Shown: piece by piece, positions 19,292-47,868 of the stretch
Numbering within the stretch: position 1 is the stretch's first letter
How the letters are laid out: each line of letters opens with the position of its first letter
Virus record (IMG/VR): IMGVR_UViG_3300010411_000002
Span: 1-48,585 of that record
DNA length: 48,585 nt
Direction: 5' to 3' (one strand)
Origin: a virus
Program-made: the position numbers and the translations under genes
The notes under the pieces: model-generated
Database searches by the model: none
What the model saw: the letters and a program-made list of their open reading frames with translations, nothing else
What the model was told of the DNA's origin: nothing

Positions 19292-19962
19292 TCAACAACT
19301 CCCCATAATGCAGGAACATTCGGAGGTTCCCACCCAATTTGGGCTGTATGCGCTTGAATGCAGTAATATAATACCTCGTTGTAAAGCACTTGCTCATTTA
19401 CATCATAATATGTCCCAGCCTGCCATTCGTCCGATGGCTCCTGAACCTGCTGCCATAATGCCGGAACATTTGGAGGCGTCCAATCAGCCTGAGTCACATG
19501 GGGTTGTATGCAGGAGTACACAGTCCCCTCATATTCCCGTTTCATCCCGACTTCAACCTGCTCCCCGACTATCCAATCGAGCGTTCCTTCGCCTTCCTGA
19601 AAGAATAAAAACAGCGCCGGGGTCTCGTCAGGATCATAGATTGTCCGCTCGTGAGACTGCCGGACAATGACAGCCTGTCCGTCCCAATTATAAATTGTGC
19701 CTTCTTCAAGCATCCCTGAGTCCGGCAAATCAGGAAAAGACGTTGCTGGCAGAGCGTCAATAAACTCGTTGACATCCTCGCTATGGATGACCGTATGTCC
19801 GGTCGCAAGGCAAGTATTGCCGTCTAAAACCCCGGAGGCGAAACATTGCTCATCGTAAAAAATAGCATACCGTTTAGCATTGCCGTTGTTTACGATATGC
19901 TCCGCCATTGCCGAAGTTGACAGCAGCAGGCAGGATATAAGGATTAAGAGTCGTTTTATCAT
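19288..19962 (-). CDS. Secreted protein with two carbohydrate-binding-like modules
   Basis: A 224-aa protein. Signal peptide at 1-21 (MIKRLLILISCLLLSTSAMA). The C-terminus has two copies of a chitin-binding-like module (CBM5/12 type), each ending PPNVPALW with an internal YxCIQ(A/P)H. These modules often occur on phage fibres and on chitinases. The signal peptide implies Sec export or a membrane-inserted tail-fibre accessory. It overlaps the repeat protein upstream by 4 nt. Confidence 0.7.
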   Translation of the reverse strand: MIKRLLILISCLLLSTSAMAEHIVNNGNAKRYAIFYDEQCFASGVLDGNTCLATGHTVIHSEDVNEFIDALPATSFPDLPDSGMLEEGTIYNWDGQAVIVRQSHERTIYDPDETPALFLFFQEGEGTLDWIVGEQVEVGMKREYEGTVYSCIQPHVTQADWTPPNVPALWQQVQEPSDEWQAGTYYDVNEQVLYNEVLYYCIQAHTAQIGWEPPNVPALWGVVE

Positions 19963-21125
19963 GGCGCTGATCCTCCATTATAGGTGATGGTCCAAGTGTT
20001 AAATCCTTCTGTTTCCGGGTCATTCGCCAGCTCGTAAACATATTCAAGCCCCGTCGTAGGCGGATCGCCGTCCTGATACACTCCAGAAGGCGTTGCGTTT
20101 ACAGTTCCGCCGGAGCCATCAATGTATAACTCAGGCGTTGCGTCATCAAAATTTGCTCGAAGTCGGTAAATGTTTTCCAGAACCTCGTCAACCTCGGCCT
20201 CAATCATCGATAGGTCTCTGAGATCGATTAAACTGTATGAATAGCTTGGAAGTGTTGCCACACCGCCTGTAATAGCGCTGTCAGTACTGTGAACACGCAG
20301 GATAGTCAACGTGCTATTATCAGCAATAGAACCAGTTATAACGCTGTCAGTATTGTCAGCACGCAGGTAATTCAACGTGCTGTTATCAGCAATTGAGCCT
20401 GTAATAGCGCTGTCAGTATTGTCAGCACGCAGGTAATTCAACGTGCTATTATCAGCAATTGAGCCTGTAATAACGCTGGAAGTATTGTGAACCTGCAGGT
20501 AATTCAACGTGCTATTATCAGCAATTGAGCCTGTAATAACGCTGGAAGTATTGTAAGCCCACAGGTAATTCAACGTGCTATTATCAGCAATGGAGCCTGT
20601 AATAGCGCTGTCAGTATTGTAAGCCCACAGGATAGTCAACGTGCTGTTATCAGCAATGGAGCCTGTAATAGCGCTGTCAGTATTGTGAACATACAGGTAA
20701 TTCAAAGTGCTGTTATCAGCTATAGAAAATGTCAGCCCAAAATCGGCATTATCTTGTAATCTCAATTCCGTCATACTTGGCAATCCGTTCAGGAATGCCA
20801 TTGACTGAGCTTTGGTTAGGACATTGTCGAGATTGTTATCGCTTAGATCAACCGCTGTTACATGTCCACCGGAAACCGTTATCCCCTCCCAATTGCCGAC
20901 CGTCGTATCAGTTGTCCAGTCCGTATTATCCGTCCAGCTATCACCTCCAGCAGCATTGTAAAAGTTAATTAATGCTTCGGCTTCAGAGATAGGCACATCA
21001 GCAGGGACAAACCGAGTATATCCCAGCGTCACCCCTTTTTGAGTAACGCCCTTTGTCGTAACCCCGGCAAAGGCCAGCGCCGGGATTAATAAAAATGCTA
21101 TGAGTAAGGATAATCTTTTCAACAT
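19959..21125 (-). CDS. Secreted solenoid repeat protein (7 x 22 aa)
   Basis: A 388-aa protein. Signal peptide MLKRLSLLIAFLLIPALAFA (1-20); an LRR-like cap (ALINFYNAAGGDSWTDNTDW and VTAVDLSDNNLDNVL); then seven 22-residue repeats SIADNSTLNYL..., a leucine-rich-type solenoid; then a C-terminal globular domain. Residues at repeat positions 12-14 vary (YVH, WAY, QVH, RAD, RVH) while the frame is rigid, suggesting a tunable binding face. Tail-tip adhesin or exported surface protein; undecided. Confidence 0.7.
   Translation of the reverse strand: MLKRLSLLIAFLLIPALAFAGVTTKGVTQKGVTLGYTRFVPADVPISEAEALINFYNAAGGDSWTDNTDWTTDTTVGNWEGITVSGGHVTAVDLSDNNLDNVLTKAQSMAFLNGLPSMTELRLQDNADFGLTFSIADNSTLNYLYVHNTDSAITGSIADNSTLTILWAYNTDSAITGSIADNSTLNYLWAYNTSSVITGSIADNSTLNYLQVHNTSSVITGSIADNSTLNYLRADNTDSAITGSIADNSTLNYLRADNTDSVITGSIADNSTLTILRVHSTDSAITGGVATLPSYSYSLIDLRDLSMIEAEVDEVLENIYRLRANFDDATPELYIDGSGGTVNATPSGVYQDGDPPTTGLEYVYELANDPETEGFNTWTITYNGGSAP
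20265..20726 (-). repeat. 66-bp in-frame tandem repeat, 7 copies
   Basis: Seven contiguous 66-bp units encode the 22-aa repeats of the solenoid protein. Differences between units concentrate in a few codons, mainly unit residues 9-10, 12-14, 17 and 19. Confidence 0.95.
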
Positions 21126-26200: not shown

Positions 26201-28876
26201 TTATAATCCTAACAGGAGATTAACCCCCTCCTCGCTGGCCCGGATTTGAATTTGTTCTAATAGTTCATACATAATCATTTCCAAATGTGGAGCCAATCCA
26301 TCGCCATTGACTTTAATAAGCGCATCGCCTCTCTCAATAGCCTGTTTCCGTGCTTCTATTTCAGCTATTGTCGCATCGTTAAGCTGTTTCTGCATTTCCA
26401 GAAGTTGCTCACGATATTCCTGCTCTTTTCTGATCTGCCGTTCAACCGCAAACCGTTCATTAATCGAATCAGCGCCAATTAAAGCGTCAACCATGCTTGA
26501 AATAGTGTCCCCGGTATCTGCAAACATATCAGCAGTTGTTTGACTCAGCGTTTCAATACGTGCCGTTGCAGCCTCAATTTCTGCGATGTCAACATCCGCT
26601 TTAATTCTGAACATCTCTTTTGCGGCATCTGACTGGATTCTGGCATGTTCGAGGTCTGCCTCAATTTCTATTTTTGCGATATCTGACAGGCTTTTGACGT
26701 CCTTTTTGGCCTGCTCGATATCATCTTTTTTTGTCTCAACAGGGACTTCAATAGTTTTCCATTCGCCATCATGCCAGTATTCAATCGTTTTGGTCGCCGG
26801 AGTTACGTCTGCGTCGACTTCGATTTTATTTTCCTCCCCGGTCACCAGCACGCCGAGCTTTTCAAGGTCGCCTGTTAAATCGGCTGTTGCGATAACGTCA
26901 ATCTTTTTTTCGGATGGTAATTTTTCATCGACATCCTTACTGTCAAGTTTTAATATCAGGTTGCCTTCTTGATCCCTGATTTCTCCTGTTTTGGGATCAA
27001 ATATCGTGTTGTCGCCATATCCGACATCAACCTTAAAAGGGATTGTATGGTCAACAGGGGGAACTTCGCCATAAATTAAACCTAAAATCTTATCAACTGC
27101 TATCGCAACCCCACCGGCCAACGCAACGACGCCAAGAGTTATTCCAACGACCGGGTTTATAAAAGCAGCCGCACCTGTTAATATTTTTATGAGATTTGTT
27201 CCAGCCAAAAAAGCTATAGATGCGCCAAGTCCTTTTATTGCGTCACTTACACCGCCAACGAGACCGGACAACGAATTGATTATTTTAGATACGCCAAGAG
27301 CCTCTCCAGCCGCCCTTTTTTCTTCGTCCGATAAATCATTAAAATTATCAGCTAAATCTATAACCCATTTTACAGCGTCAATTAACGCACTAATCATTCC
27401 ATCAGAAACGATAATAAACGATTCAGTGGTATTGACAATTTTTTGAATTACGTTTGCCAGATCCTCGGGATCTGAGATATCAATCCCGTCAAATATCCCT
27501 GAAATGGTATCTCTTACATCAGCCATCGCATCAGCGAGTCCAGAAAAATCAACTTTTTCAAATGCTTCCGGCAAATTTTCAGCAATTTCAGCCAGGGCAT
27601 CACCGATTGAAAAACCAAAATCATCAACTATTTTTAGGACTTCATCAAACGTTCCTTTGTCTATTTCGTCAACAATAGTTTTAAAAATTTCAGTGACGCC
27701 TCCTACTGCTGACATAGCACCTTCCGACATCGCTTCGCCGACCTCAATAAACATAGCGTCTGTTGCGGATACCAACGCCCTTATTGCTCCGCCCATGCCT
27801 GATTCCATTTCGGTTGCGATATCTTGAGTTATTCCTCCTAAGCTTTCTATTTTTCTCTCAAGATCGGATACCGCCGTCGAACCCTGCTCAAGCAAAGCCT
27901 GCATCTGCGGACCACCGCGTTTTCCAAAAATATCAATCAGCGTTGCAGCCCTGTCCGTCGGATCATGTATTTTCTCAAGCCCCGATTTCATATCGTCCAT
28001 TATATCTGCAAATGGGCGCAAATTGCCGTCCGCATCCTTTACGCTAACCCCTAGTGAGTCAAGTGCGTTTCTGGCGCTACCTAAATCAATTCCAAACTCT
28101 GATGTATCAACGCCGAGTTTGTCCATTAATTTACTCATATTTGTTGATGGAGCTACGAGCGCAATTAAAATATTTCTGAGCGCAGTTCCGCCCATTTGCG
28201 CCTTATATCCTGCATTTGCAAGAACGCCCAATATTGAGGCTGTTTCGTCAAGCTCCAGTCCTAATGATTTTGCGACAGGCCCGACGAATTTAAAGGCATC
28301 ACCGAGTTCTGAAAGAGACGTGTTTGAATTGGTAAATGTTGCAGTTAGTGTGTCAGTTGCGCCAACAAGACCCTCAACACCAATGCCATATCCAGCCATG
28401 ATATTAGTGACAATATCTGCGGCCTCTCCAAGGTCAATCGCTGCGGCCTGAGCCAGGTTTAAAGTGTTTGGTAATGCCCCTATCGCATCATCTACGGACA
28501 AGCCTGCGAGCGCAAGAAATTCAAGCCCACTTGCTACCTCATCAGCAGTATATCGTGTTTTCGCACCAAGTTCTTTGACAAGATCGGTAAGGGTTTGATA
28601 CTCCGATTCTGAAGCCCCCATGACGCCTTTAACTTTTAGCATCACGTCCTCAAGATCGGCAAACTTTTTTACTGAAACTCCAAGACCTGCGGCAACGATA
28701 GCAGCAAGAGCGGCATCAACTTTTAATATCGAGTCAGCAAGATTCGCAAATGGCTGGGTTGTTTTTTTGACGGCTGAAGATAGGTTGTCAAGCTTGGAGC
28801 CTATTGTCTTTATAGTACTTCCGACTGTCTCTGTTCCCTTGAATAATATCTCAATCGTTTTTGACGTATCAGCCAT
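26201..28876 (-). CDS. Tail tape measure protein
   Basis: An 891-aa protein. N-terminal helical region with KTTQPFANLADSILKVDAAL; a TP901-type core with GLEFLALAGLSVDDAIGALP and NIMAGYGIGVEGLVGATDTL; a hydrophobic stretch near residues 570-600 (PVVGITLGVVALAGGVAIAV); and a long charged C-terminal coiled coil. These are typical for a siphovirus tape measure, which sets tail length. The ATG overlaps the frameshift product of the assembly chaperone. Confidence 0.92.
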   Translation of the reverse strand: MADTSKTIEILFKGTETVGSTIKTIGSKLDNLSSAVKKTTQPFANLADSILKVDAALAAIVAAGLGVSVKKFADLEDVMLKVKGVMGASESEYQTLTDLVKELGAKTRYTADEVASGLEFLALAGLSVDDAIGALPNTLNLAQAAAIDLGEAADIVTNIMAGYGIGVEGLVGATDTLTATFTNSNTSLSELGDAFKFVGPVAKSLGLELDETASILGVLANAGYKAQMGGTALRNILIALVAPSTNMSKLMDKLGVDTSEFGIDLGSARNALDSLGVSVKDADGNLRPFADIMDDMKSGLEKIHDPTDRAATLIDIFGKRGGPQMQALLEQGSTAVSDLERKIESLGGITQDIATEMESGMGGAIRALVSATDAMFIEVGEAMSEGAMSAVGGVTEIFKTIVDEIDKGTFDEVLKIVDDFGFSIGDALAEIAENLPEAFEKVDFSGLADAMADVRDTISGIFDGIDISDPEDLANVIQKIVNTTESFIIVSDGMISALIDAVKWVIDLADNFNDLSDEEKRAAGEALGVSKIINSLSGLVGGVSDAIKGLGASIAFLAGTNLIKILTGAAAFINPVVGITLGVVALAGGVAIAVDKILGLIYGEVPPVDHTIPFKVDVGYGDNTIFDPKTGEIRDQEGNLILKLDSKDVDEKLPSEKKIDVIATADLTGDLEKLGVLVTGEENKIEVDADVTPATKTIEYWHDGEWKTIEVPVETKKDDIEQAKKDVKSLSDIAKIEIEADLEHARIQSDAAKEMFRIKADVDIAEIEAATARIETLSQTTADMFADTGDTISSMVDALIGADSINERFAVERQIRKEQEYREQLLEMQKQLNDATIAEIEARKQAIERGDALIKVNGDGLAPHLEMIMYELLEQIQIRASEEGVNLLLGL

Positions 28877-29049
28877 TTATCCTGTTTCCCATGTTTTCGT
28901 AAAATCGGTTCCAGAGCGCAATCTCGGTGTCAGTTAAAAAACCCTGCGGGAAAATATCCGGGATTAATTCGTATAGTTGCTTATGCCCTTTGTAGCCTAA
29001 AACTAATGCCGCCCGGACTCGGCTATCACTCCAAAGGGCATCTATTCCC
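28869..29049 (-). CDS. Tail assembly chaperone extension (T-like), expressed by -1 frameshift
   Basis: An open frame without its own start that begins at the end of the 29042-29452 gene: GIDALWSDSRVRAALVLGYK and onward to WNRFYENMGNRING, about 59 residues. The 0-frame reads CCG-GGG-GAA-TAG; slipping back one base on the five-G run (29047-29051) enters this frame. Position between major tail protein and tape measure matches lambda G/T, where a -1 shift makes gpGT. Confidence 0.75.
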
Positions 29050-29452
29050 CCGGCAATGACCCCATCGCTGTTAAGGCCGTGATTTCATTTGCCAAATTAT
29101 AGAATGTTACCGGGTAGTTTCGTCCTAACCGGACGGCCTTTTCCTGCGTCATTTTAGGACTTTGAACACCAAACTCAACCATGGCTATTTTATTGACATA
29201 ATCACCCGGCAATATGTCAGACAGTCCGAGTTTTTCCTGAATCGCCTCGACAATGTCCGGGACACGATCAGCCAGAAATCGCCGGATAACCTCGTCAATG
29301 GCTTTATTCTGGTTGACACGCTCACGGGCGAAAGCAATTTCTTGCCCGTAAAGGTTCTGAATGACAAACTCTTTTTCAGAACCCTCCGGGAATATGTCCG
29401 TGTCTTCGACTTCTGGAGCTTTTATAGTTTTTGTTCGCCTCTTAAAGTTCAT
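29042..29452 (-). CDS. Tail assembly chaperone (G-like)
   Basis: A 136-aa protein starting MNFKRRTKTIKAPEVED. I use ATG 29452, not the earlier frame start at 29521, because the latter lies inside the major tail gene. It probably chaperones the tape measure; the C-terminal PGE ends at the slippery G-run. No clear motif; assignment rests on position, size and the frameshifted partner. Confidence 0.75.
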   Translation of the reverse strand: MNFKRRTKTIKAPEVEDTDIFPEGSEKEFVIQNLYGQEIAFARERVNQNKAIDEVIRRFLADRVPDIVEAIQEKLGLSDILPGDYVNKIAMVEFGVQSPKMTQEKAVRLGRNYPVTFYNLANEITALTAMGSLPGE

Positions 29453-41824: not shown

Positions 41825-41867
41825 GCACTTTTTTGCAAAAAAATAAAAAAAAGTGAAAAAAAATAAA

Positions 41868-41900
41868 AAAAGCCCCGAGCTTTTCGCCCGAGGCTTTTTT
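41868..41900 (-). terminator. Intrinsic terminator
   Basis: Minus strand: AAGCCTCGGGC and GCTCGGGGCTT form an 11-bp stem with two G-T pairs around GAAAA, followed by T5 and further T-rich sequence. The symmetric A/T runs make it potentially bidirectional. It separates array A from promoter 2. Confidence 0.85.
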
Positions 41901-41910
41901 GCCTTGCCGC

Positions 41911-42000
41911 TACCCCACCTTACCAGACCAGACCGCACCACACCAGACCTGACCTGACCATACCTAACCCCACCCCACCGCACCACACCTGACCCAACCT
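41911..42000 (-). repeat. Pentanucleotide array A, 18 units of NACCN (GGTNN in mRNA)
   Basis: Eighteen consecutive 5-bp units all carry ACC at the same phase while the other two bases vary freely. It begins 10 nt after the stop of the 42011-42541 gene and is followed by the terminator. Confidence 0.95.
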
Positions 42001-42010
42001 AACAAAAATC

Positions 42011-42541
42011 TTACTCAATCTCTTTCACATTCGGAAATCTACGCTTTGTAAACGCAGATTTCAAAAATGATAACCTGGACATTTTGTTTACCAGAATTTC
42101 AGCAGATTGACCGTCAAGCAAGTTATAGTCAATATTTCCGATCACCATCGAGGCTTTACGCAATGCCCTGCTCGATTTTCTGAAATACGTATCAACGCCT
42201 TCCTTTGCCTGTTGATTCGGCGTTAATATCCTGTATCCATAACCTCTAACCGACATGAGGCATATATTATAATCAAGCAATAGCTTTTCTTTTATCCTGT
42301 CAATGCCCTGCAAAAAATAATCCCGATTGTATCTTGCAAGAGCTTCAATAAAGCTATCTTGGTCGTCATAATCATGATATTGCGGCTCATCAAGTCCCAT
42401 CCACTCTCTCAACTCATCGTGATTAAACATACTCTCGTATTTGACCTTGTTGAACCTATCAATGATTTGATTGATAGCCTCCTGAATGAATGGACGCTTC
42501 TCTTTCGGTGAAATATAAGTTTGTTTTTCCGTCTCTGTCAT
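42011..42541 (-). CDS. Hypothetical phage protein (176 aa)
   Basis: Start 42541 (MTETEKQTYISPKEKRPFI) has AACAACAAAGGAGGG directly upstream; the longer frame to 42604 would translate repeat array B. Helical, with LLLDYNICLMSVRGYGYRIL, whose VRGxGYR motif resembles winged-helix wings, but I cannot assign it. Arrays A and B lie on either side. Confidence 0.65.
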   Translation of the reverse strand: MTETEKQTYISPKEKRPFIQEAINQIIDRFNKVKYESMFNHDELREWMGLDEPQYHDYDDQDSFIEALARYNRDYFLQGIDRIKEKLLLDYNICLMSVRGYGYRILTPNQQAKEGVDTYFRKSSRALRKASMVIGNIDYNLLDGQSAEILVNKMSRLSFLKSAFTKRRFPNVKEIE

Positions 42542-42570
42542 TGTGACCCTCCTTTGTTGTTGAAAAATCC

Positions 42571-42650
42571 CTACCGTACCTAACCTTGCCTCACCAGACC
42601 GCACCTCACCATACCGAACCGGACCCTACCATGCCCAACCACACCGCACC
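42571..42650 (-). repeat. Pentanucleotide array B, 16 units of NNACC
   Basis: Sixteen in-phase units, 14 with ACC and two with GCC (ttgcc, atgcc). It fills the space between the stop at 42654 and a TTTTTCAACAACAAAGGAGG leader. Confidence 0.95.
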
Positions 42651-42653
42651 TTG

Positions 42654-43265
42654 TTATTTCAAAACCTCAACTGAAAACTTCCCGTACTGTCCACCTTTTT
42701 CCGGCCTATAATCACCCATTCCGCAAAGTTTACCTGCGTCAATGGCTGATTCGACAATGGTGTCCCGGTTTATCACATTCCCGTCAAACAGGATAACGAT
42801 CTGAGCAATCCCCCATTCGTAGAACACCGGCCTTGTCCGCAATAACCGGCTTGAACCGACTCGGACTGTGTCTTGATGACTGTGTGCATCGTATAAGGCA
42901 TCAAGATCATCGTTTGGTATTTCTTTTGATTCTGAAAAAATAATTTTGCCTGGATATTCGAGCGGAAAAAAATCTTCAGCCAAAACACACCCAGTCTTCC
43001 ACCTGGTACCGTTCTTCTGCTTTGTTGCTCCACGTTCAAAGGTTTTGTTGACAACCCTTGCCGGGAGCTGAATTGAATTTTTATAGGTGTAAAGTCCGCC
43101 TTCCCACTCGATCCTTGCCAGTTCGGCAATGTCATCAAGTGTCTTTTTCCGTTTGCCTGATTTTGCCCCTATTGCCTGAGTATAGGGATCAAGCGGGTTT
43201 GCAAGCCTGCTATTGTGCATTAACAGCGGCGTCTCTCCATTGATCTTTAATGTAATTTCGCCCAT
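42654..43265 (-). CDS. Conserved-type phage protein of unknown function (203 aa)
   Basis: MGEITLKINGETPLLMHNSR, a central ARVVNKTFERGATKQKNG, and a C-terminal CGMGDYRPEKGGQYGKFSV. The closing G(D/E)(Y/W)RP..GG.(Y/F)G(K/R)F motif recurs in phage proteins I cannot name. SD GAGGAGGT. It is the first gene behind the 43404-43432 promoter and array C. Confidence 0.68.
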   Translation of the reverse strand: MGEITLKINGETPLLMHNSRLANPLDPYTQAIGAKSGKRKKTLDDIAELARIEWEGGLYTYKNSIQLPARVVNKTFERGATKQKNGTRWKTGCVLAEDFFPLEYPGKIIFSESKEIPNDDLDALYDAHSHQDTVRVGSSRLLRTRPVFYEWGIAQIVILFDGNVINRDTIVESAIDAGKLCGMGDYRPEKGGQYGKFSVEVLK

Positions 43266-43305
43266 GCCTCGTACCTCCTCATTGTTATTGATTGTTAAAA
43301 AGTCC

Positions 43306-43380
43306 TTACCTTACCCTACCTTACCTGACCCAACCGAACCTCACCCCGCCCCACCAGACCTTACCATGCCAGGCCTAACC
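43306..43380 (-). repeat. Pentanucleotide array C, 15 units of NNACC, in a 5' UTR
   Basis: Fifteen in-phase units, 12 with ACC and three variants (ccgcc, atgcc, aggcc). It lies between the predicted transcript start (about 43397) and the 43265 gene, and directly after a 5'-terminal hairpin ACCATGA-ATTAA-TCATGGT (43378-43396). Confidence 0.95.
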
Positions 43381-43403
43381 ATGAATTAATCATGGTATGT
43401 CAG

Positions 43404-43432
43404 ATAATACATTAGTTATATACGCATGTCAA
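43404..43432 (-). promoter_or_regulatory. sigma70-type promoter in the insert (3)
   Basis: Minus-strand TTGACA (43427-43432), 17-bp spacer, TATTAT (43404-43409). Start at about 43397 places a hairpin at the very 5' end of the message, followed by array C. Confidence 0.75.
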
Positions 43433-46077: not shown

Positions 46078-46625
46078 AGCGCCTTTGATACCCATTGTAA
46101 ACACGTCCTGATTTCTGTTTCCAGCGTCTTCTCGATCTTAAACGCATCGGTTTCAACTGCCAAAACCGACCTGAGCCGGGACGGTAATGCCAGGAGCGCC
46201 TCCCTGGTCTTGGTAGCACACTCCGCCGCTTCAAAATCAACCTGCTCCGCATCAATGAATTTACCACGTAAGGCATTGTATTCAATCTGCATTGTAGCGG
46301 CTTTCAGGTTCTCTTGCAGCTTTTTAGCCTCGTGGATTGTTTTAAGGCCACCCTGGATCCCAGCTTTTTTTTGCTCTTGTTCGACCATTTCAGGGGTTGG
46401 ATGTTTGGCAGCCTCTTTACGCCGTTGCTGTTCGGCAACCCGTTCGGGATCGGAGCTTTTTTGCAGGCAGACTGCGACCTTGTCCGGATCATACATCCGT
46501 TTGCCGTTATAGGTTCTCGTAGCACCCTTTAGCCTGCCCTGTTTATACGCCTTGCTTAGATATGGCCCTGATACGCCGACTATGCGGGCACACTCAGCCT
46601 GTGTTGTGTACTGTTCGATTGGCAT
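46074..46625 (-). CDS. Terminase small subunit (Nu1-like)
   Basis: A 183-aa protein. N-terminal winged HTH: TTQAECARIVGVSGPYLSKA, then RLKGATRTYNGKRMYDPDKV, as in lambda Nu1-type DNA recognition. A basic Gln/Glu-rich helix and C-terminal helices follow. It should recognise the packaging site and recruit the large subunit. It overlaps the radical SAM gene by 32 nt. Confidence 0.85.
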   Translation of the reverse strand: MPIEQYTTQAECARIVGVSGPYLSKAYKQGRLKGATRTYNGKRMYDPDKVAVCLQKSSDPERVAEQQRRKEAAKHPTPEMVEQEQKKAGIQGGLKTIHEAKKLQENLKAATMQIEYNALRGKFIDAEQVDFEAAECATKTREALLALPSRLRSVLAVETDAFKIEKTLETEIRTCLQWVSKAL

Positions 46626-47868
46626 AATATGTTCCTATCTTACATTCGTTTTTATGGTTTCCGTCAATGAGATGCCAAAGCCCGTATTTTTGAATAATAT
46701 CGAAAAATGCAGGCAGCCCTATATCTTTTCGTTCTTTTATTTTCCCGGATATAAAATGCTCATTATTCCGCATTTCTAAAATTTTATCCACATCATACCA
46801 ATTAGCACGGTTTAACATCGTGTCTATAACCGCATTATACGGATAAAGATTACCGTCTCTGAAAATAACCACCCTTGCACTTTTTATTTTCCACAATCTC
46901 TTTATGCGAGGTATATTAATCTGAATTAGTTTCGATACATCATATCGCTCAAGAGGCGTTAAGGCGCATGGATCAAAGTAATTTATTATAACGCCTATCT
47001 TCGCTTTTCCGTCATAATCCTGATCTAATAATTCGGAAAATGACTCCCATTCCTCTTGACTGTTAAATCCTGCCATCATAAATATATTAACTCTCTGATT
47101 TTGCCTTTTTGTCAGCCTGAAAAATTCAATAAGATGATCGTCTTTTATGGGCTTTGACAGCCATTTTCTTGTGCTTTCCGATGGACTTTCAACTCCGAGC
47201 CGTAATAATTTTATACCCTCAAAACTTTTCGGATTTTTAATATATTCTTTTATGCGAACATCCGACACAGAACGATTGACTGTAACCCCTGAATCAAAAT
47301 CATTCGTTATTAGATATAACTGTTTATTTCCTATTTTTCGCCTTATTCTTAATGCCCTGCTTTTATTTGGATTCACCTGATATTTATTCGCCCATGAAGT
47401 CAGACAGAATTTACATTTATTTCTGCAACCCATTGAATATAAATACGAATAACTGTTTTTACCAATCTGAACGCATGGAATAATGTCCCAATTAATATAA
47501 TCTGAATATTGTCCAGATAGCTTTCCCCGATGCACAATATATTCTTTTTCTTTAATGTCCGATATATTTTGACAATCTCTGAATAATTCAAAACATTGTC
47601 CTAAACATACATAATCGGCATATCGAAGCAATGCAGATGGATTATTACAAGCATGTCCTCCGGCGATTATAACGCCGTTCTGATTTTTATTTCTGAAAAT
47701 TCTAAGCTGATCTATCTCGAAAAATGAGGTTAAACTTATTCCAGATAGATCAGCTTTTTCAGGAGTATCAACTATTTCGTGTCCATATTTTATCGCAATA
47801 TGCTTTAATAGCTCAAACGTGTAGGTTGTTATCTTCTGCTTATTTCCCTGGTAAAAAAAGATTTTCAT
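46594..47868 (-). CDS. Radical SAM enzyme with B12-binding-like N-terminus
   Basis: A 424-aa protein. N-terminal about 110 residues form a Rossmann-like domain (NGVIIAGGHACNNP at 64-77) resembling the cobalamin-binding domain of B12-type radical SAM proteins, though no DxHxxG is visible. The [4Fe-4S] motif CRNKCKFC at 148-155 is CX3CX2C. LRLGVESPSES and FNIFMMAGF-like strands (VNIFMMAGF) follow as in the TIM barrel. Substrate unknown. It overlaps both the ParB-like and small terminase genes, so it is co-translated with packaging genes. Confidence 0.85.
   Translation of the reverse strand: MKIFFYQGNKQKITTYTFELLKHIAIKYGHEIVDTPEKADLSGISLTSFFEIDQLRIFRNKNQNGVIIAGGHACNNPSALLRYADYVCLGQCFELFRDCQNISDIKEKEYIVHRGKLSGQYSDYINWDIIPCVQIGKNSYSYLYSMGCRNKCKFCLTSWANKYQVNPNKSRALRIRRKIGNKQLYLITNDFDSGVTVNRSVSDVRIKEYIKNPKSFEGIKLLRLGVESPSESTRKWLSKPIKDDHLIEFFRLTKRQNQRVNIFMMAGFNSQEEWESFSELLDQDYDGKAKIGVIINYFDPCALTPLERYDVSKLIQINIPRIKRLWKIKSARVVIFRDGNLYPYNAVIDTMLNRANWYDVDKILEMRNNEHFISGKIKERKDIGLPAFFDIIQKYGLWHLIDGNHKNECKIGTYYANRTVHNTG

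What the first reader, a model, noticed from the sequence alone, without database searches (positions are those of the whole stretch)
41911..43380. Three arrays of a strict NNACC pentanucleotide (GGTNN in mRNA)
Arrays of 18, 16 and 15 units at 41911-42000, 42571-42650 and 43306-43380 keep ACC every five bases while the other two positions vary almost freely. Of 49 units, 44 are ACC and the rest differ by one base. Simple slippage would copy the spacer bases too, so selection on the trinucleotide at fixed spacing is likely. In the minus-strand transcripts this reads GGU-NN-GGU-NN. Possible meanings: a multi-site RNA- or DNA-binding platform (TRAP binds trinucleotides with 2-nt spacers), runs of two-tier G-quadruplexes (GG every five bases), or phased DNA contacts every half helical turn. 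Array C lies in a 5' UTR. I know of no described system with this form.
Basis: partly seen in the sequence, partly recalled or inferred. Interest (0 to 1): 0.78.

Follow-up and report, generated by a model that had tools for sequence, protein, structure and literature searches.

The report
Phage VIPR system with guide-RNA arrays
The three odd five-base repeat arrays are the guide-RNA parts of a VIPR system, a CRISPR-related RNA-guided weapon that phages use against rival phages, first described in a 2026 preprint; this is one more member, with a compact layout of its own.

Summary
Read on the minus strand, all 49 units are GGY (44 GGT, 5 GGC), so even the "errors" fit one rule. The arrays flank two genes: a 203-aa protein (42654-43265) and a 176-aa protein (42011-42541). 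The 203-aa protein matches the solved SUSP1 Vipr (PDB 36pp; phmmer E 2e-19). Its confident AlphaFold model (pLDDT 95.6) matches CRISPR Cas7/Csm3-type RAMP proteins. The 176-aa protein is homologous to the second gene of the SUSP1 VIPR locus. This is therefore a type II-like VIPR system (preprint PMC13142463): Vipr coats vrRNAs of GGY/NN repeats, and the variable NN pairs read DNA under a 1-nt-skip rule. Array-ascertained loci encode Vipr in 47 of 66 cases, against 0 of 54 with simple repeats. Vipr-ascertained bacterial loci carry arrays in 19 of 24 cases. I checked the skip rule on a Pseudomonas relative: one site matched 22 of 22 guide bases in a phage gene, skips on wobble positions. No target was found for this phage's own three guides. 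The layout (promoter, array, vipr, array, vap, array, terminator, without the SUSP1-type structured tail) marks a four-member sub-branch and may be a variant. Known kind; new member.

The parts
43404..43432 (-). sigma-70-type promoter TTGACA-N17-TATTAT; predicted start near 43397, just before array C
   Evidence: 11 of 12 consensus bases; consensus match only, and the region as a whole is not enriched over shuffles
43378..43396 (-). 7-bp inverted repeat ACCATGA...TCATGGT at the predicted 5' end of the transcript; its last bases are the first GGT unit of array C
   Evidence: sequence; hairpin in the predicted fold
43308..43382 (-). vrRNA array C, 15 NN-GGY units: AT TA CT AT AA CT GG GG GA TC TG CA AA AG AA
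43266..43307 (-). short AU-rich extension after array C (AAGGACTTTTTAACAA...) running into the ribosome-binding site GAGGAGG of vipr; no stable hairpin
42654..43265 (-). vipr: 203-aa RAMP protein (phrog_4652), homologue of SUSP1 Vipr (PDB 36pp)
42573..42652 (-). vrRNA array B, 16 units: AA GC GT TG AT AG CC TC AT GA GC CT GA AA TA AC
42542..42572 (-). short extension after array B (AGGGATTTTTCAACAACAA) and ribosome-binding site AGGAGG of vap
42011..42541 (-). vap: 176-aa accessory protein (phrog_5926), homologue of the second gene of the SUSP1 VIPR locus (ALH47068). The GTG start at 42604 reported by ORF calling lies inside array B; the ATG at 42541 with a ribosome-binding site is the likely start
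41912..42001 (-). vrRNA array A, 18 units: TA TG CA GT GC GG GG TA AT CA CA CT GT GC CT CT AA GG
41866..41900 (-). intrinsic terminator directly after array A, closing the VIPR operon
   Evidence: 15-pair stem then T-run; fold z -3.7

Best explanation
The arrays are vrRNA guides of a phage-encoded, type II-like VIPR system. A promoter at about 43.4 kb makes a minus-strand transcript: array C, vipr, array B, vap, array A, terminator. Each array is a repeat tract of 15-18 GGY/NN units. Vipr, a small RAMP protein, is expected to bind one GGY per subunit and form a filament on the RNA, exposing the NN dinucleotides. These pair with double-stranded DNA as NNxNNxNNx, one target base skipped per unit, and the bound complex blocks transcription of a rival phage, prophage or satellite gene. 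Shown here: the gene family, fold, array code, linkage and orientation, and, for a relative, a target match under the 1-nt-skip rule. Inferred from the preprint's experiments on SUSP1: RNA production, binding and repression. Not known: the targets of this phage's three guides, and how the RNAs are cut out of the operon transcript.
For: All 49 units GGY. Vipr homology: PDB 36pp phmmer E 2.1e-19, profile E 1.2e-47; 29% identity over full length to the SUSP1 gene at 28474-29061. AlphaFold model pLDDT 95.6, and the listed best PDB matches are almost all Csm3/Cas7/type VII RAMP subunits, E from 1e-5. Accessory gene homologous to SUSP1 ALH47068, E 4e-16. Linkage: 47 of 66 degenerate-array loci carry vipr against 0 of 54 simple-repeat loci; in 46 of those 47 loci the GGY strand is the vipr strand. 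Reverse ascertainment: 19 of 24 vipr loci in bacterial genomes carry arrays; of the arrays called, only one (in L207) lies on the other strand. Control: 0 arrays in 44 unrelated viral loci. Skip-rule check: array L200:3682-3741 hits 2 of 199 Pseudomonas genomes (2 and 3 mismatches, mostly in unit 1), backward control 0, 2-nt skip 0; both hits lie in the same phage-type gene (phrog_12894) with skips on wobble positions. Literature: PMC13142463.
Against: No target was found for the window's own arrays, either by exact half-array scans of IMG/VR or in about 130 genomes of the phylum of the nearest relative's host, up to 3 mismatches. A single SUSP1 guide also gave nothing in IMG/VR, so this search has low power. 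Array A (18 units) slightly exceeds the published 9-16 range. Arrays B and C lack a SUSP1-like structured tail. No RNA evidence exists for this phage. Nineteen array loci had no recognised vipr in the fetched stretch.
Confidence: 0.95

Rival explanations
1. Vipr binds the arrays as leader elements in its own mRNA, so the arrays are chiefly autoregulatory sites rather than guides.
For: In the window, L113, L132 and L185 arrays end 20-50 nt before the start codons of vipr and vap with the ribosome-binding site directly behind.
Against: The last array follows vap and ends in a terminator; NN dinucleotides are diverse and differ between arrays; in relatives arrays stand clustered away from start codons; a relative's array has a near-perfect skip-rule target in a phage gene. 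The two roles do not exclude each other.
Confidence: 0.04
2. TRAP-like ring protein or other multi-site RNA binder that reads GGU triplets, with the 2-nt spacers meaningless.
For: Triplet plus 2-nt spacer geometry as in TRAP targets (general knowledge).
Against: No TRAP family match among the neighbouring genes tested; the linked protein is a RAMP homologous to Vipr; unit numbers vary from 7 to over 40 instead of 11-12.
Confidence: 0.005
3. G-quadruplex runs or phased DNA contacts.
For: GG every five bases.
Against: GGY with Y conserved is not required for quadruplexes; strand is fixed relative to vipr; linkage to one protein family explains the pattern.
Confidence: 0.005
4. Degenerate microsatellite decay with no function.
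For: 54 of the loci from the IMG/VR pattern scan are simple exact or near-exact repeats of this kind.
Against: The degenerate arrays form a separate class: linked to vipr, GGY kept while NN is diverse; none in control loci.
Confidence: 0.001

Closest known systems
VIPR of Escherichia phage SUSP1 (type II; Vipr structure PDB 36pp; PMC13142463)
   Same: Vipr and Vap both homologous; GGY/NN arrays on the gene strand; arrays on both sides of the vipr-vap pair
   Different: SUSP1 has one vrRNA upstream and three in a downstream array, each with a conserved structured tail; here the three arrays alternate with the two genes, B and C have only short AU-rich tails that hold the ribosome-binding sites, and A runs into a terminator
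VIPR of Pseudomonas prophages (P. fulva clade of the preprint; here L184, L190-L194, L200)
   Same: Same Vipr and Vap families and array code; target in a phage-type gene for L200
   Different: Arrays clustered on one side with a hairpin tail AAGGGCTG...CAGC; no arrays seen between vipr and vap
Class 1 CRISPR-Cas backbones (Cas7/Csm3, type VII)
   Same: RAMP fold; subunits expected to oligomerise on a guide RNA
   Different: No CRISPR array, no Cas10, Cas1 or nuclease; period 5 with two readable bases rather than a contiguous spacer; no significant sequence similarity
TRAP (tryptophan RNA-binding attenuation protein)
   Same: Triplet repeats with 2-nt spacers
   Different: Unrelated protein; spacers not informative in TRAP; no TRAP gene found near the arrays

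Membership tests
VIPR | Vipr protein: single-RRM RAMP homologue in the Vipr family | tested here: met
   PDB 36pp E 2.1e-19 and 1.2e-47; RAMP fold; in a supported clade of 17 with SUSP1 Vipr, 97/94
VIPR | vrRNA repeat tract of GGY motifs alternating with hypervariable NN, 9-16 units | tested here: met
   49 of 49 units GGY, NN diverse; 15 and 16 units within the range, 18 slightly above it
VIPR | Minimal locus with a vap gene, in a phage genome | tested here: met
   vap homologue of SUSP1 ALH47068, E 4e-16; terminase, head and tail genes around it
VIPR | Invariable 3' tail on vrRNAs, structured in the SUSP1 clade | tested here: inconclusive
   B and C share a short tail RRGGAYTTTTTMAACAA without a strong fold; A runs into a terminator hairpin. 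Structure is stated only for the SUSP1 clade in the main text
VIPR | Targets on competing mobile elements under the 1-nt-skip rule | tested here: inconclusive
   None found for the window arrays; met for the relative L200
VIPR | vrRNA expressed and bound by Vipr; dsDNA binding and silencing | not testable with these tools
   Needs experiments
VIPR type II | Vipr and vap1 of the SUSP1/P. fulva branch | tested here: met
   the preprint's own type table (supplement) could not be read, so the type is by homology
CRISPR-Cas class 1 | CRISPR array and cas gene set | tested here: not met
   No cas match among the window proteins scanned (not every ORF was scanned); repeats are not CRISPR-like
TRAP regulon | TRAP (TrpBP) protein | tested here: not met
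   No match among ten neighbouring proteins

The most novel reading that the evidence does not exclude
The window belongs to a distinct sub-branch of type II VIPR in which the guides are built into the operon itself, serving at once as mRNA leaders of vipr and vap and as tail-less vrRNAs, so that Vipr level, its own translation and guide supply are coupled.
Probability: 0.3. Interest if true: 0.55.

Novelty: new member of a known kind. Interest (0 to 1): 0.42.

Why it matters
VIPR is a recently described RNA-guided DNA recognition system thought to be older than CRISPR. This window adds a compact self-contained cassette of about 1.6 kb from an uncultivated phage with no close relative among sequenced phages, and independent large-scale support for the published rule. 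The tail-less, gene-interleaved arrangement would test how little a vrRNA needs and how guides are released from an mRNA.

Tried and rejected
Target search for arrays A, B and C by half-array exact patterns in IMG/VR: 44 loci, none matching beyond the half searched. Target search with up to 3 mismatches in about 130 genomes of the phylum of the L185 host: none. Target search of 197 arrays in the 1.1 Mb of loci held at the time: no excess at any skip length. SUSP1 vrRNA1 as positive control in IMG/VR: no hit. Terminase as a way to the host in 85k genomes: no relative. G-quadruplex, phased-DNA and TRAP readings rejected after the vipr linkage. Rfam, tRNA and PADLOC scans: nothing. Rfam on 12 array loci found no hammerhead at gathering threshold.

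Full report
What is in the sequence. On the minus strand they read NN-GGY: array C 15 units, B 16, A 18. All 49 units are GGY; the five apparent deviations are GGC. Chance is excluded by shuffles, by Markov surrogates of the window (longest run 5 units) and by 44 unrelated viral loci with none.

What lies around them. The arrays alternate with two minus-strand genes: 42654-43265 (203 aa, phrog_4652) and 42011-42541 (176 aa, phrog_5926), both of unknown function in PHROGs. A promoter TTGACA-N17-TATTAT (11 of 12) ends 21 bases before array C, and a strong intrinsic terminator follows array A. The promoter call is a consensus match only. The region is therefore a likely self-contained operon of about 1.6 kb, lying between the terminase and the head genes of a tailed phage. 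There is no similar phage in INPHARED at megablast sensitivity.

Linkage elsewhere. They split into simple repeats (54 loci) and degenerate arrays (65 loci plus the window). An iterated profile of the 203-aa protein finds a homologue in 47 of the 66 degenerate loci and in none of the 54 simple ones; in 46 of the 47 the GGY strand is the gene strand (the exception, L048, is an ORF that overlaps its arrays), usually within a few hundred bases. Going the other way, 24 loci found in bacterial genomes by the protein alone include 19 with GGY arrays, all on the gene strand apart from one extra opposite-strand call in L207. The closest, L185 from an FCB-group genome, is 58% identical and has the same array-vipr-array-vap-array order.

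Identity. The protein matches PDB entry 36pp, "SUSP1 Vipr protein" (phmmer 2.1e-19; profile 1.2e-47). Its AlphaFold model (mean pLDDT 95.6) matches Csm3 and other Cas7-type subunits, including type VII, as nearly all of the listed PDB matches. The literature search led to PMC13142463, which describes VIPR: a RAMP protein (Vipr), vrRNAs of 9-16 YNNGG repeats, DNA recognition through the NN pairs with one skipped target base per unit, transcriptional repression, and use in conflict between phages. The VIPR locus of phage SUSP1 (record KT454805) shows the same gene pair and arrays; Vipr is 29% and Vap 28% identical to the window's. The filing under VIPR rests on tests made here, not on the resemblance of the repeats alone.

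Test of the reading rule. For a relative, the prophage VIPR of Pseudomonas juntendi (L200), one array of 12 units was turned into a 1-nt-skip pattern and searched in 199 Pseudomonas genomes. Two sites matched with 2 and 3 mismatches; the backward control and a 2-nt-skip pattern gave none. In the better site both mismatches are in unit 1 and the other 22 bases all match; my estimate is about 0.02 sites expected by chance at up to 2 mismatches in 24 (the 22 of 22 view drops unit 1 after the fact). Both sites lie in the same gene (peptide ASDIARH[I/L]EQIR; phrog_12894 in PHROGs), and the skipped bases fall on its wobble positions. This agrees with the preprint on data chosen here. A single array was tested, so it is support rather than a survey.

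Targets of this phage. None was found. This says little: exact half-array scans have low power, the host is unknown, and one SUSP1 guide also found nothing in IMG/VR.

What may differ. In a tree of 51 Viprs the window, L185, L113 and L132 form a supported clade (100/99) within a supported set of 17 that includes SUSP1 and the Pseudomonas systems (97/94). In all four, arrays precede vipr and vap, with ribosome-binding sites shortly after the arrays, and follow vap. Arrays B and C of the window have short, weakly folding tails in place of the SUSP1-type structured tail. Whether the guides are processed from the mRNA and whether Vipr binding regulates its own operon are open. The supplement of the preprint could not be read here, so it is unknown whether this layout is already listed; for that reason it is filed as a new member, not a new variant.

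Verdict. Observation confirmed; interpretation partly supported; system already described in 2026; new member of a known kind, in a possibly distinctive arrangement.

Noticed in passing
window 20265-20720: 66-bp tandem repeat, 6.9 copies, inside the minus-strand ORF 19959-21125; and a 33-bp unit x3 at 1391-1489. Looks like repeat variation in coding sequence, function not examined.
   Followed up: no
L098, L101, L116, L117, L124, L127, L130, L028, L035, L036, L047, L049, L052, L055, L057, L065, L071, L081, L089: Degenerate array loci with no recognised Vipr in the fetched stretch: short fetched loci, orphan arrays, chance or coding repeats, or a more divergent Vipr. L101 arrays sit between conserved GC-rich hairpin-like segments.
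   Followed up: partly
L093 (111.9 kb record): 23 eight-unit pattern matches and arrays of up to about 70 units with mismatches, the largest arsenal seen.
   Followed up: no
L208:2259-2834: Dokdonella array cluster of eight arrays that appears to be built on GGC where the others use mostly GGT; its Vipr is on a long branch.
   Followed up: no
L209:1501-1535, L210:1501-1535: Predicted target site of the P. juntendi VIPR in a phrog_12894 gene; in L209 a Toprim/primase-like gene lies beside it (my reading of the translation).
   Followed up: partly
window 46594-47868: A radical-SAM-like protein (Pfam PF04055, below cut-off) next to the terminase genes in a phage, unusual cargo.
   Followed up: no
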